DNA of 21,914 nt from IMG/VR virus record IMGVR_UViG_3300013286_000071, positions 1 to 21,914 of that record; one strand, written 5' to 3'. The notes under the pieces were generated by a model, which saw nothing but the letters and a program-made list of their open reading frames with translations, was not told where the DNA came from and searched no databases. The number at the start of each line of letters is the position of its first letter. Within the stretch, counting starts at the first letter, position 1. The position numbers and the translations under genes are program-made. Below are positions 501 through 4,463 of this stretch, piece after piece. Source of the stretch: a virus.

Positions 501-594
501 TTGAGACTTGGCTACCCTTAGCGGGGGAAAAGGCGATTCGTTACCGCCCTGCCACAGTTTCTTTCTGTAACGGCGACCGACAACGTGAGGTTTT
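501..594 (+). promoter_or_regulatory. Leader between cro-like gene and replication gene with alternative stems
   Basis: The 94 bases contain no ORF. CGTTAC (539-544) can pair with GTAACG (567-572). ACAG (554-557) can pair with CTGT (565-568). The two stems share bases and so exclude each other. No U-tract follows, so it is not a rho-independent terminator. A GAGG ribosome binding site for the next gene lies at the end. A regulatory role is only a possibility. Confidence 0.2.
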
Positions 595-1815: not shown

Positions 1816-1858
1816 TGATTTACGCAGGAGGATGAATGCGATACGCAGCTCGGACTGA
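1589..1858 (+). CDS. Hypothetical helical protein, 89 aa (dual-frame region, downstream frame)
   Basis: Reads +1 relative to the 1579 ORF. Residues 20-85 are strongly protein-like: TPQQRLELLETMKTMEAREW, then ARYRKKL, GWWSKVLLDIEKKRG and a DLRRRMN end. I associate this with a short phage family carrying the WW...IE..RG...LRRRMN pattern, function unknown. It is basic and all-helical, which would suit nucleic-acid binding. Its own start is weak: ATG 1589 is about 17 bases from the strong AGGAGGT that serves ATG 1579. It may be reached by reinitiation, a frameshift, or a start I cannot identify. Its 3' end overlaps the VRR-NUC start by 23 bases. Confidence 0.6.
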   Translation: MKQTDFLTDTKKHVNLATLTPQQRLELLETMKTMEAREWIARYRKKLKDHGKTNASGWWSKVLLDIEKKRGLPAANDLRRRMNAIRSSD

Positions 1859-2102
1859 TGAAAACCAAGCCGCCATAGTTAAGGCGTTGCGGAATGCTGG
1901 CGCTTATGTGTGGATTATTGGCCTGCCAGTTGACCTTTTGGTGGGGTATGGCAACCACACATTCTTGGTAGAAATTAAAAGGGACTCTAAAGCCCTTCTA
2001 ACGCCCTTACAAGCCGACTTTTTTGAAAGTTGGTGCGGAGGTACATTGGCTAGGATTGACAGCCCTGAAGCGGCTCTTAGGATGATTGGAGTTGTAAAGT
2101 GA
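1836..2102 (+). CDS. VRR-NUC domain nuclease
   Basis: 88 aa, a stand-alone VRR-NUC domain of the PD-(D/E)xK superfamily. The expected core is present: Asp33 in GLPVDLLV, then E46-x-K48 in FLVEIKRD, then a Gln in LTPLQADF (Gln59). These residues coordinate the metal and the scissile phosphate. Phage versions are thought to act as structure-specific nucleases, for example Holliday-junction or flap cleavage, during recombination and packaging. GGAGG five bases before the ATG fixes the start, inside the previous gene. The length is normal for single-domain members. The TGA overlaps the following GTG start as GTGA, so the next gene is coupled. Confidence 0.85.
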   Translation: MRYAARTDENQAAIVKALRNAGAYVWIIGLPVDLLVGYGNHTFLVEIKRDSKALLTPLQADFFESWCGGTLARIDSPEAALRMIGVVK

Positions 2103-2428
2103 AACCCGAAGAAGCAGCACAGCAGATTAGAGACAAAGCGCCAGCTTACGGCGAAGCTAAAGCCCAGCGGGTTTACCTTGAAGAATTTCGCAAAAGCCAA
2201 AAAGCGCTATTAATGCGAGATGCGCTAAATATGGGCTTTGAGGCCGCCAACGCGCAAGAACGCGAAGCGTACGCCGACCCTGCCTACCAAAAGTTACTCA
2301 AGGGCTTGGCTGCGGCGATTGAGCAGGAGGAAACCCTTAAATGGGAGATTGAAGCAGCTAGATTGGACATTGAAATTTGGCGTACACGCGAAGCTACAAA
2401 CCGTATGCAAGACAGGTCGCATCAGTGA
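2099..2428 (+). CDS. Hypothetical helical early protein, 109 aa
   Basis: The start is GTG at 2099 (GTGA overlap with the VRR-NUC stop), with GGAG about seven bases upstream. The protein is entirely helical and charged. A central DPAYQKLLKGL and a C-terminal LKWEIEAARLDIEIWRT, followed by an ATNR, resemble a small family found beside recombination genes in many siphophages and podophages. No catalytic motif is visible. It lies between two nucleases, which suggests a role in DNA recombination or as an accessory subunit. That role is inferred from position only. Its TGA again overlaps the next GTG. Confidence 0.7.
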   Translation: MKPEEAAQQIRDKAPAYGEAKAQRVYLEEFRKSQKALLMRDALNMGFEAANAQEREAYADPAYQKLLKGLAAAIEQEETLKWEIEAARLDIEIWRTREATNRMQDRSHQ

Positions 2429-2679
2429 ACAACAAACCCACAAAGAAAGAACGCGAGCATTTAGCCACAATCAAGGAAATGCCTTGCGGGGTATGTGACG
2501 CGGCTGGTCCATCGGATGCCCATCACATTGTCCAGCATGAGCAATACCTTTGCATACCGCTATGTAAAGACTGCCACCAAGGGTCGTTTAATGGCATCCA
2601 CGGCCAAGCAAGGATTTGGAGTGTCTACAAAAAGACCGAAATGTCAGTCCTTAACGAAACCCTGAGAAACTTGCTTTAA
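2425..2679 (+). CDS. HNH-type zinc-binding nuclease-like protein
   Basis: 84 aa from GTG 2425, chosen because it gives the same GTGA overlap as the previous junction. An ATG further upstream at 2377 would add 16 residues with no good ribosome binding site. Motifs in order: C21-x2-C24, the HH pair at 33-34 (AHHIV), then C47-x2-C50-H51 and His59. This four-cysteine zinc knuckle around an HH pair is the HNH/treble-clef layout, closest in feel to the RecA-dependent nuclease Ref and related small phage HNH proteins. It would nick or cut DNA during recombination or packaging. It is the last gene of the early operon. Its TAA overlaps the stop of the convergent gene. Confidence 0.75.
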   Translation: MNNKPTKKEREHLATIKEMPCGVCDAAGPSDAHHIVQHEQYLCIPLCKDCHQGSFNGIHGQARIWSVYKKTEMSVLNETLRNLL

Positions 2680-2897
2680 TATTTCCGCATTGATGGCAGA
2701 GGCGCCTTCTTTTGGTTGGCCTCATGTGAACGGTGCATGGGGTGAGCATGAGCCATATCAGTCTTTTCGTGCTTTTTCAGCTCTTTTTCAAGCGCTGCAA
2801 CCTTGCGGTTTTCTTTTTTGTACTCACGTTCAACGACGTATTCCTTGGCTTCTTGAGCTTTGGGTTCGCCTTTTGTAAGTGTAAAGTTTGTAGCCAT
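2676..2897 (-). CDS. Small highly charged coiled-coil protein, 73 aa
   Basis: Leftward gene with an excellent ribosome binding site (AAGGAG before ATG 2897). After a short leader (MATNFTLTKG), residues 12-48 form a Lys/Glu-rich helix (EREYKKEN, ALEKELKKHEK) that could form a coiled coil. The tail is rich in His, Met, Pro and Lys. There is no membrane segment or catalytic motif, and no family is recognised. Its 3' end meets the HNH gene tail to tail with overlapping stops (TTAA, 2676-2679). At its 5' end it diverges from the acidic gene. The coding strand is opposite to the early operon, so it is probably expressed separately. Confidence 0.65.
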   Translation of the reverse strand: MATNFTLTKGEPKAQEAKEYVVEREYKKENRKVAALEKELKKHEKTDMAHAHPMHRSHEANQKKAPLPSMRKY

Positions 2898-2974
2898 CGT
2901 TTCTCCTTAGATGAACTGTCATATTAAGACTTTAACATTTTACTCGGCAATCGTGCCATAACAAGGGGTTTATT
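2898..2974. promoter_or_regulatory. Divergent intergenic region, candidate promoters both ways
   Basis: 77 bases separate the divergent charged and acidic genes, so promoters for both should be here. Leftward, TTGCCG and TTAATA/TAATAT lie 17-18 bases apart (4/6 matches). Rightward, TTAACA (2932-2937; 5/6) is followed 19 bases later by CATAAC (4/6). Both are weak matches. AGGGG for the rightward gene and AAGGAG for the leftward gene are clear. Confidence 0.3.
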
Positions 2975-3256
2975 ATGTACAAGATTGAAATTAGCATTGG
3001 TGATTATGAGTGGTCTAGTGATTCAGTGACTATTGAAACAAACGATTTTGACAAGATCGCTATTATTCAAGAGTTCATCGAATTCCAACAAGCATACGGC
3101 TGGGCTGTTGACTATGACGTTACAGACGAATACTTGGAAGAAGCCAACGAAGCTGAAGAAGCTGAAGAAGCTGAAGAAGTTGAAGAAGCTGAAGAAGTTG
3201 AAATCGGCGAAGTCGTTGAAGACGAAGACGGTATGATTTGGGAACGTGTGGCATAA
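2975..3256 (+). CDS. Strongly acidic repeat-containing protein, 93 aa; moron-like
   Basis: The N-terminal ~55 residues look globular and beta-rich (MYKIEISIGDYEW, TIETNDFDKIAI), then helical. Residues about 56-76 are an uninterrupted EEA/EEV stretch from a 9-bp tandem repeat, and the end is DEDGMIWERVA. I count 33 acidic residues against 3 basic ones, a net charge near -30. AAGGGG before the ATG supports the start. The gene has its own divergent upstream region and its own terminator (3277-3303), and it opposes the late operon. Phage proteins this acidic sometimes mimic DNA and inhibit restriction, CRISPR or polymerase (Ocr is the classic case). That is a hypothesis here, not an assignment. 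Confidence 0.75.
   Translation: MYKIEISIGDYEWSSDSVTIETNDFDKIAIIQEFIEFQQAYGWAVDYDVTDEYLEEANEAEEAEEAEEVEEAEEVEIGEVVEDEDGMIWERVA
3155..3199 (+). repeat. Tandem 9-bp repeat GAAGAAGCT/GAAGAAGTT, five copies
   Basis: Five consecutive 9-base units lie inside the acidic gene, differing only at C/T in the eighth position, with a partial copy just before. Because the unit is a multiple of three, slippage would change the length of the acidic EEA/EEV tract without breaking the frame. Confidence 0.9.
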
Positions 3257-3276
3257 TCTTTATGCAGTTGTCTGTA

Positions 3277-3303
3277 GGGGGGTCTTAGGACTCCCCTTTT
3301 TTT
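3277..3303 (+). terminator. Rho-independent terminator after the acidic gene
   Basis: GGGGGGTC (3277-3284) pairs with GACTCCCC (3289-3296) with one G-U wobble across a TTAG loop. Seven Ts follow. In the opposite direction the stem has an A-C mismatch and no U-tract, so it should act mainly on rightward transcription. It isolates the acidic gene from the late operon coming toward it. Confidence 0.9.
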
Positions 3304-3514
3304 ATTCAATATTGTGATCTGCTTCTACGTCTCTAGCCAGTTGTCTCCAATCTAAGCTACGTCTGTATAACGTATATATACGCTCTTCACTTAGCGGTTC
3401 AGAACGGCGGTTTAGCCTGTCGTTTGCTTCAGCAAGGGAAAGCTGGGTTTCATTCAAAATGCTATGCAGCTCTTTGATTTCTGCCCTAAGAAAATTTACA
3501 AGGTCATACGTCAT
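3302..3514 (-). CDS. Small helical phage protein, 70 aa
   Basis: Start chosen at ATG 3514 (MTYDLVNFL), not the in-frame ATG at 3547, because AGGGG lies eight bases before 3514 and nothing comparable precedes 3547. This gives an 11-base overlap with the metallophosphoesterase stop. Residues 5-40 form a heptad-like helix (RAEIKELHSILNETQLSLAE). The C-terminus, ending in LARDVEADHNIE, resembles the (F)ARAIE..HGI ending of many small phage proteins of unknown function. It is the last gene of the leftward late operon. The stop codon overlaps the T-tract of the convergent terminator. Confidence 0.65.
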   Translation of the reverse strand: MTYDLVNFLRAEIKELHSILNETQLSLAEANDRLNRRSEPLSEERIYTLYRRSLDWRQLARDVEADHNIE

Positions 3515-4463
3515 AAACTTTACCCCTAAATTCAATTTTGCCCTCATCCCATTTATGGACTAACTCTGGCCACAAAAGTCGTCCTTCATGGAATGTAAGT
3601 ATGGCAAAGCCCGACCGCCAGTTAGTTGGACCATCCTCAAGGTAATTTATAAATTGTGGTCCATTAGGCTCCGCAAGGGTTCCAGTATCAACACCGTAAC
3701 GTGTGCCGTTATAGTCAGAGTAGGGTGTTACCTTCAGGCTGTGTAAATGCCCTGTAACCATTGTTTTGCCCGACATTGAGGTGTTGCCATGGGTAGCGTG
3801 GATACCGCCCTTCCAGCGGTGTTTAACCACTACTTCATCGGTAGGCCAACAGCTCCAGCATGGATGCCATGTAGGGAAATGGTCTTTTAGCGAAAAGCCT
3901 TTGACAAACTCATATTGAGGTGCGTTGGCTGCTAGGCGATTCTCAAACCTTGCATCATGGTTGCCAAGTGTCCATATAAGGTTTACATTGCTTCTGGCTT
4001 TCTTAGCTTCATCTTCTATCTCACCAAGAGATATTTCACAGGCTTTAAGTTCTTGGATTACCGATGGCGTTGAATCCCATCCAATGCGAGGAAAGCGAGA
4101 AATAGAAGCGCCATCAAATACATCTCCATTGGCAATAATGGCTTTAGGTTGAAACTCTTTAATTGCCCAAAGAACACCTTTAAACGCCGTTGTATGTATG
4201 CCTGGCCAAAAATGAGCATCGCTAAAAACCAAAACAACACCATTTTCAATACCTAATTCTTTTCTTACTGGATTCTCAGGCTTGTTAATAGATGCGAGTT
4301 TATAACTAGAAACAAGCGCCAAGCCCATTTTGTCTTCAATATCTTTGCGCCGCCTAAGAATCTGTCGCTCATCCATTCCAATAGCAAGCGCCATCTTTTT
4401 CCCTGATTTGTGCGTATTCCAAATTTCTACAAACTCTTCATCGCTATAAACTGGCTTTGGCAT
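3504..4463 (-). CDS. Calcineurin-like metallophosphoesterase with N-terminal HTH
   Basis: 319 aa. Residues 1-50 resemble a helix-turn-helix (KMALAIGMDERQILRRRKDI). From about 75 the metallophosphoesterase motifs follow in order: SDAHF (81-85), NGDVFDG (112-118), GNHD (167-170), H222-x2-H225 in GIHATHG, and GHLH (238-241). These ligands hold two metal ions for phosphate-ester hydrolysis, so the enzyme should be active. Similar phage proteins are annotated as DNA exonuclease or phosphoesterase, and the DNA-binding N-terminus makes a nucleic-acid substrate plausible. The actual substrate is unknown. GGAG of the ribosome binding site lies in a short hairpin (4466-4482). It sits between the endolysin and the terminal gene of the late operon, an odd place for a DNA-metabolism enzyme. 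Confidence 0.85.
   Translation of the reverse strand: MPKPVYSDEEFVEIWNTHKSGKKMALAIGMDERQILRRRKDIEDKMGLALVSSYKLASINKPENPVRKELGIENGVVLVFSDAHFWPGIHTTAFKGVLWAIKEFQPKAIIANGDVFDGASISRFPRIGWDSTPSVIQELKACEISLGEIEDEAKKARSNVNLIWTLGNHDARFENRLAANAPQYEFVKGFSLKDHFPTWHPCWSCWPTDEVVVKHRWKGGIHATHGNTSMSGKTMVTGHLHSLKVTPYSDYNGTRYGVDTGTLAEPNGPQFINYLEDGPTNWRSGFAILTFHEGRLLWPELVHKWDEGKIEFRGKVYDV

What the first reader, a model, noticed from the sequence alone, without database searches (positions are those of the whole stretch)
2898..3303. Moron-like cassette encoding a very acidic repeat protein
A single rightward gene with its own upstream region and a strong terminator lies against the late operon. Its product has about 33 acidic and 3 basic residues of 93, with a tandem EEA/EEV tract that can change length by slippage. 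Independent transcription and extreme acidity are features of accessory phage genes such as DNA-mimic anti-defence proteins. The globular N-terminal half is conserved-looking, not low complexity, so it may carry the specific activity.
Basis: partly seen in the sequence, partly recalled or inferred. Interest (0 to 1): 0.55.

Follow-up and report, generated by a model that had tools for sequence, protein, structure and literature searches.

The report
Portable acidic-protein gene shared by phages
The spot holds a real gene for a small, very acidic protein of unknown function that freshwater phages of two unrelated kinds share, often as a self-contained unit with its own start and stop signals; the idea that it disarms bacterial defences is possible but untested.

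Summary
In detail: one rightward 93-aa gene (2975-3256), 33 acidic and 3 basic residues, a 9-bp repeat tract, a terminator. It is a genuine, conserved phage gene: at least 100 IMG/VR relatives, none found in INPHARED, PLSDB, GTDB genomes, Pfam, PHROGs or PDB. The N-terminal ~50 residues are conserved (predicted beta-beta-alpha, no fold match), the tail keeps its charge but not its sequence, and the EEA/EEV repeat is peculiar to this phage. In the window's lineage it is a constant gene beside a metallophosphoesterase. In unrelated HTVC023P-like phages it is an occasional cassette between major capsid and cement genes, beside an HNH endonuclease; no other window gene was found shared. Promoter, leader hairpin and terminator mostly accompany the gene. 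So 'moron-like' is partly right; 'anti-defence DNA mimic' is untested. My leading guess, at 0.35, is a polyanionic effector that binds a host nucleic-acid-binding protein.

The parts
2916..2938 (+). Promoter-like element: GTCAT box (CTGTCAT 2916-2922) 10 nt before a -10-like TAACAT (2933-2938)
   Evidence: Strict form in 86 of 97 distinct upstream regions; the 11 others have a variant box at the same spacing. Strict pattern 74 times at this gene and nowhere else in 585 kb of loci L001-L080.
2944..2958 (+). Leader inverted repeat TCGGCAATCGTGCCA just after the -10; weak in the window (GGCA/TGCC, 4 bp)
   Evidence: Same place in relatives with at least four unrelated stem sequences; z below -1 in 61 of 74 distinct leaders, but -0.2 in the window.
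2963..2968 (+). Ribosome-binding site AAGGGG, 6 nt before the ATG
   Evidence: Sequence; similar in relatives.
2975..3256 (+). Gene for the 93-aa acidic protein
2975..3133 (+). N-terminal domain, residues 1-53, predicted beta-beta-alpha, family core IIxEFIEFQ...W...Y
   Evidence: AlphaFold2 of residues 1-58, mean pLDDT 83; invariant columns; dN/dS 0.17.
3137..3202 (+). 9-bp tandem repeat encoding the EEA/EEV tract, specific to this phage
3203..3253 (+). Conserved C-terminal motif (EIGEVVEDEDGMIWERVA)
   Evidence: Alignment; replaced by WY-YDEE repeats and/or a TYVITRIEE-like end in other backgrounds.
3276..3303 (+). Intrinsic terminator AGGGGGGTCTTAGGACTCCCCT followed by T run

Best explanation
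The gene encodes a small polyanionic effector. Its folded N-terminal beta-beta-alpha domain would dock on a conserved host (or phage) protein, and the charged, sequence-variable tail plus a short C-terminal motif would occupy a nucleic-acid-binding surface, in the manner of phage DNA mimics; target unknown (RNA polymerase, nucleoid protein, nuclease or restriction enzyme). SHOWN: the gene is real and selected; N-domain conserved; charge kept while tail sequence drifts; in the window type and in HTVC023P-like phages it is flanked by its own promoter-like element and terminator; it occurs in unrelated phage backgrounds without other window genes; in the window lineage it is constant. INFERRED: transcription by host RNA polymerase from the -10-like element, high stable expression from leader hairpin and ribosome site, nucleic-acid mimicry, any host target. 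Constancy within the lineage and a strictly conserved N-domain fit a conserved target better than one particular defence system.
For: Charge: 33 acidic/3 basic of 93; 109 distinct full-length members have net charge -53 to -21, median -33. dN/dS 0.17 N-domain, 0.44 tail, 0.28 C motif. Terminator 77 of 78 vs 3 of 600; promoter pattern private to the gene in 585 kb. Of 32 window proteins only this one hits the 34 loci of the other background (31 of 34). Capsid-to-cement distance 134-188 nt in most loci where both are found, 749-1065 nt in others; occupied vs empty site compared. Tree mixes backgrounds: 5 label changes where 2 are the least possible.
Against: No functional homologue or fold match (best PDB Foldseek E 2.3 full chain, 3.4 domain). 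In the sister clade it is a late-operon gene without own promoter, so early host takeover is not general. Acidity alone is common in unrelated proteins; the tail's charge may serve solubility or flexibility only. The usable structure model covers the N-domain only and is of modest confidence (pTM 0.54).
Confidence: 0.35

Rival explanations
1. Late or virion-associated accessory protein (capsid, packaging or release), made together with structural/lysis genes and given its own promoter when inverted or moved.
For: Sister clade: directly behind the phosphoesterase, in late direction (13 loci). In the other background it sits between major capsid and cement genes. Constant neighbour of late genes in the window lineage.
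Against: Own promoter-like element and terminator separate it from those operons in most loci. The capsid-cement site also holds GIY-YIG- and HNH-like ORFs (named by eye), so position there may reflect insertion, not function. Rare among capsid relatives (2 of 68).
Confidence: 0.25
2. Anti-defence DNA mimic in the strict sense (anti-restriction, anti-CRISPR).
For: Composition close to Ocr (34 acidic, 6 basic of 116; abstract of PMC4872106). Occasional in one background.
Against: No homology to any such family; constant and conserved in the window lineage, unlike the usual patchiness of anti-defence genes (recalled); late-operon position in the sister clade.
Confidence: 0.15
3. Regulator or lysis-timing factor working with the adjacent phosphoesterase/endolysin genes.
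For: Neighbours the phosphoesterase in both orientations in the window lineage; M15 peptidase divergent just upstream in 54 of 69 group-1 loci with enough sequence.
Against: Neither the phosphoesterase nor the M15 peptidase of the window was found in the 34 loci of the other background.
Confidence: 0.12
4. Passenger of a homing-endonuclease unit with no benefit to the phage.
For: In 30 of 34 loci of the other background a convergent HNH gene follows; the 4 misses end at the contig edge.
Against: Constant in the window lineage; purifying selection. An HNH neighbour of the same family was not sought systematically in group-1 loci.
Confidence: 0.08

Closest known systems
Ocr of phage T7 (DNA mimic, anti-type I restriction)
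   Same: Small phage protein with extreme acidity: 34 acidic/6 basic of 116 (abstract, PMC4872106) against 33/3 of 93 here.
   Different: No detectable sequence or fold relation; here a short folded N-domain plus low-complexity tail.
Gp44 of phage SPO1 (acidic DNA mimic that inhibits RNA polymerase)
   Same: Folded N-terminal ~55 residues followed by a very acidic flexible region and a C-terminal part (abstract and section 16 of PMC8208478).
   Different: Gp44 is 237 aa and its N-domain binds DNA; this N-domain is itself acidic (net -7 to -11 over residues 1-50). No homology shown.
Phage morons (self-contained extra genes with own promoter and terminator; definition recalled)
   Same: Insulated unit, occasional in HTVC023P-like phages, present at unrelated places.
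   Different: Constant in the window's lineage and part of the late gene run in a sister clade; expression in a lysogen cannot be judged.
HTVC023P-like podoviruses (carriers in the second background)
   Same: Capsid protein of carrier L169 is 62-72% identical to that of named isolates incl. HTVC023P, DSL-LC04 and Pag-Yong1.
   Different: The capsid regions of those three isolates lack the gene.

Membership tests
Phage moron | Own promoter | tested here: inconclusive
   Conserved -10-like element with upstream box in 97 distinct upstream regions, strict in 86; not seen at the gene in 13 sister-clade loci; transcription not measured.
Phage moron | Own terminator | tested here: met
   77 of 78 relatives vs 3 of 600 random stretches; the sister clade was not in this count.
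Phage moron | Extra relative to close relatives (presence/absence) | tested here: inconclusive
   Met in HTVC023P-like phages (2 of 68); not met in the window lineage (75 of 80, misses at contig ends; 26 of 28 with phosphoesterase at 68% or more, 0 of 37 below).
DNA-mimic protein (Ocr/Gp44 type) | Extreme acidity | tested here: met
DNA-mimic protein (Ocr/Gp44 type) | Binds a DNA-binding protein in place of DNA | not testable with these tools
   Needs biochemistry.
DNA-mimic protein (Ocr/Gp44 type) | Shared fold with a known mimic | tested here: inconclusive
   No Foldseek match below E 2.3 (PDB) or 0.43 (BFVD); a missing match does not exclude.
Anti-defence protein | Inhibits restriction or CRISPR | not testable with these tools
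   No PADLOC match says nothing on counter-defence; no functional homologue found.
Capsid decoration / virion protein | Present in virions | not testable with these tools
   Only position argues for it.

The most novel reading that the evidence does not exclude
A previously undescribed family of polyanionic phage effectors with a modular build (small beta-beta-alpha docking domain, charge-conserved tail, exchangeable C-terminal module), carried as a promoter-hairpin-gene-terminator unit that moves between unrelated freshwater phages, partly beside HNH endonucleases in a capsid-cement insertion hotspot, and fixed in one lineage because it hits a host factor common to many hosts.
Probability: 0.3. 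Interest if true: 0.62.

Novelty: new member of a known kind. Interest (0 to 1): 0.42.

Why it matters
Small acidic phage proteins include strong inhibitors of host transcription, recombination and restriction, but they are hard to find by homology. A family with a conserved docking domain, about a hundred natural variants, and both fixed and occasional occurrences gives a ready panel for finding the target by pull-down and for testing whether charge or the N-domain carries the activity.

Tried and rejected
Lone-gene claim: I thought the gene might be the only rightward gene among leftward ones; only 2 of 30 loci had no other rightward ORF of 100 aa or more within 4.5 kb, so I dropped it. Standard sigma-70 promoter: a -35 hexamer 17 nt before the -10 can be read in HTVC023P-like leaders (TTGCAA, by eye) but not clearly in the window type; I claim only the box and the -10. 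Leader hairpin in the window's own copy: not supported statistically (z -0.2, mononucleotide shuffles). Host: two contigs in Methylococcales and Bacteroidetes MAGs match the window's Hc3 protein; they disagree and may be binning errors, so no host is claimed. Full-length structure: mean pLDDT 69, tail unreliable. VIA-align second look: only common small folds, best Z 3.7 to a designed mini-protein, protein G variants next; that no known family is listed is not evidence of a new fold. Link to the other acidic proteins of the hotspot (L236, L269, L292, L298): hhalign E 0.0005 but probability 30% over 30 columns, suggestive only. Genome contigs: no relative of the protein (its one scan for this protein). 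Literature: the listings of the searches showed no description of this family; sequences cannot be searched there.

Full report
The observation. Reading 2975-3256 on the + strand gives a 93-residue protein with 33 acidic and 3 basic residues. A 9-bp unit is repeated 7.3 times at 3137-3202 and a terminator-like hairpin with a T run lies at 3276-3303. The upstream neighbour 2676-2897 runs the other way; downstream, 3302-3547 and a metallophosphoesterase (3504-4463; phrog_221 E 3e-28, Pfam Metallophos) converge on it. The window is a 21,914-base virus record with a head-closure Hc3 protein (phrog_578, E 6e-99).

A family exists. There was no match in INPHARED phages, PLSDB, GTDB genomes, none beyond noise in Pfam and PHROGs, none in PADLOC or PDB sequences. 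Across 74 N-domains nine columns are invariant: M1 D24 K27 I31 F34 F37 Q38 W43 Y47. dN/dS (simple counting, pairs with pS 0.1-0.6) is 0.17 in residues 1-50, 0.44 in the tail and 0.28 in the C motif. Among 109 distinct full-length members net charge is -53 to -21; three or more EEA/EEV units occur in one, the window's. So charge is kept and tail sequence is not, and the repeat is a local expansion.

Window lineage: constant. Among the 80 loci nearest by phosphoesterase, 75 hold the gene, always convergent with it in that set; the 5 without it end 170-331 nt after the phosphoesterase. A second sample seeded from an INPHARED relative that lacks the gene (MW202879) gave 79 new loci: of those with 900 nt or more downstream, 17 of 17 with a phosphoesterase at least 72% identical to the window's, 9 of 11 at 68-72%, 0 of 26 at 64-68% and 0 of 11 below have it. 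It was therefore gained in, or lost outside, this lineage.

The result against 'moron'. In 13 loci of that second sample (L349-L351, L354, L359, L371, L372, L376, L381-L384, L392) the gene is on the same strand as the phosphoesterase, its ATG 10 nt after the phosphoesterase stop codon, with a ribosome site in that gap and no box/-10/hairpin in between (L351 is cut by the contig end). There it looks like a member of the late gene run. Its protein ends in TYVITKIED or close to it, as many members of the other background do (TYVITRIEE-like).

Second background: occasional cassette. A scan with a divergent member found loci on contigs up to 61 kb; in the one annotated, L169, the neighbours are a portal protein and a major head protein that is 62-72% identical to that of isolates such as HTVC023P, DSL-LC04 and Pag-Yong1. 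The gene follows the capsid gene and is followed by a convergent HNH gene in 30 of 34 loci; the other four end there. Among the 80 nearest capsid loci, 2 of the 68 with 500 nt or more downstream hold it. The capsid-to-cement distance is 134-188 nt in most loci where both are found, 422 in one, and 749-1065 nt in others; the inserted block ends just before the cement gene's own promoter (by eye). Of 32 window proteins searched against these 34 loci only this one matches (31 of 34). L307 carries the gene and an HNH gene without any capsid match in its 10.4 kb, perhaps a third setting. A tree of 57 N-domains needs 5 background changes where 2 are the minimum; with only 59 columns this shows mixing, not a count of transfers.

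Expression signals. A GTCA-type box 10 nt before a TANNAT element lies at fixed spacing before the gene in both backgrounds: strict in 86 of 97 distinct upstream regions, variant in 11. In 585 kb of loci L001-L080 the strict pattern occurs 74 times at this gene and never elsewhere, so it belongs to the unit. Right after it comes an inverted repeat with at least four unrelated stems (TGGCA/TGCCA, GCRGC/GCTGC, one long GC-rich, TACAGC/GCTGTA), folding with z below -1 in 61 of 74 distinct leaders (mononucleotide shuffles), though not in the window. It may be an mRNA 5' hairpin or an operator; I lean to the former because position is kept while sequence changes. A terminator is present in 77 of 78.

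Structure. AlphaFold2 gives strands 2-7 and 17-22, a helix 25-41 and a short helix 51-57 for residues 1-58, mean pLDDT 83. Foldseek finds nothing below E 3.4 in PDB for the domain, nor below 2.3 (PDB) or 0.43 (BFVD) for the full chain.

Interpretation. The composition resembles that of Ocr (34/6 of 116, PMC4872106 abstract), and the folded head plus acidic flexible region recalls SPO1 Gp44 (PMC8208478 abstract and section 16), an RNA polymerase inhibitor. 'Works like' is plausible; membership is not shown. The best guess is a polyanionic effector with a conserved partner (0.35); a late or virion role (0.25) gained weight from the sister clade and from the capsid-cement position. The strict anti-defence reading stays at 0.15.

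By the way. The cement gene of HTVC023P-like phages has a striking covarying leader RNA, without an Rfam match at gathering score in the sources scanned; see the noticed items. It may deserve its own follow-up more than the acidic gene does.

Noticed in passing
Leaders of the cement gene in HTVC023P-like phages, e.g. L222:2646-2730, L228:3964-4046, L304:3988-4072 (HTVC023P), L305:3950-4034 (DSL-LC04): Covarying, apparently double-pseudoknotted leader RNA: a 5-nt upstream arm pairs with the loop of a hairpin (5 of 5 pairs in 53 of 53 leaders, 8 pair types; mean 30 of 53 after shuffling loops), a second helix (6 or more of 7 in 44 of 53; mean 18 shuffled), and a third reaching the ribosome site (6 of 6 in 53 of 53; mean 25 shuffled). 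The leaders were picked by a core pattern (56 distinct from 114 loci with a capsid match; 53 after thinning). No Rfam match at gathering score in 12 sources; at E up to 5 in 3 loci only sub-threshold matches lying mainly upstream of the leader.
   Followed up: partly
L222-L301, between major capsid and cement genes: Insertion hotspot: besides the acidic gene + HNH, it holds GIY-YIG-like ORFs (L239, L259, L290), other HNH ORFs, a GNAT-like ORF, and other acidic proteins with WY-YDEE repeats (L236, L269, L285, L292, L298) (names by eye except the HNH matches).
   Followed up: partly
window 505-573 (+): Rfam match int-alpA RNA (RF02996), 42.2 bits, above its gathering score of 35.8, just upstream of the DUF1376 replication gene.
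   Followed up: no
window 2676-2897 (-): Lysine-rich 73-aa protein encoded divergently to the acidic gene; no Pfam or PHROG match; found in 5 of 80 family loci.
   Followed up: no
window 1836-2102 and 2377-2679 (+): Small nuclease-like proteins (phrog_93 endonuclease E 2e-6; phrog_1588 E 3e-15 with weaker HNH matches) in the rightward gene block.
   Followed up: no
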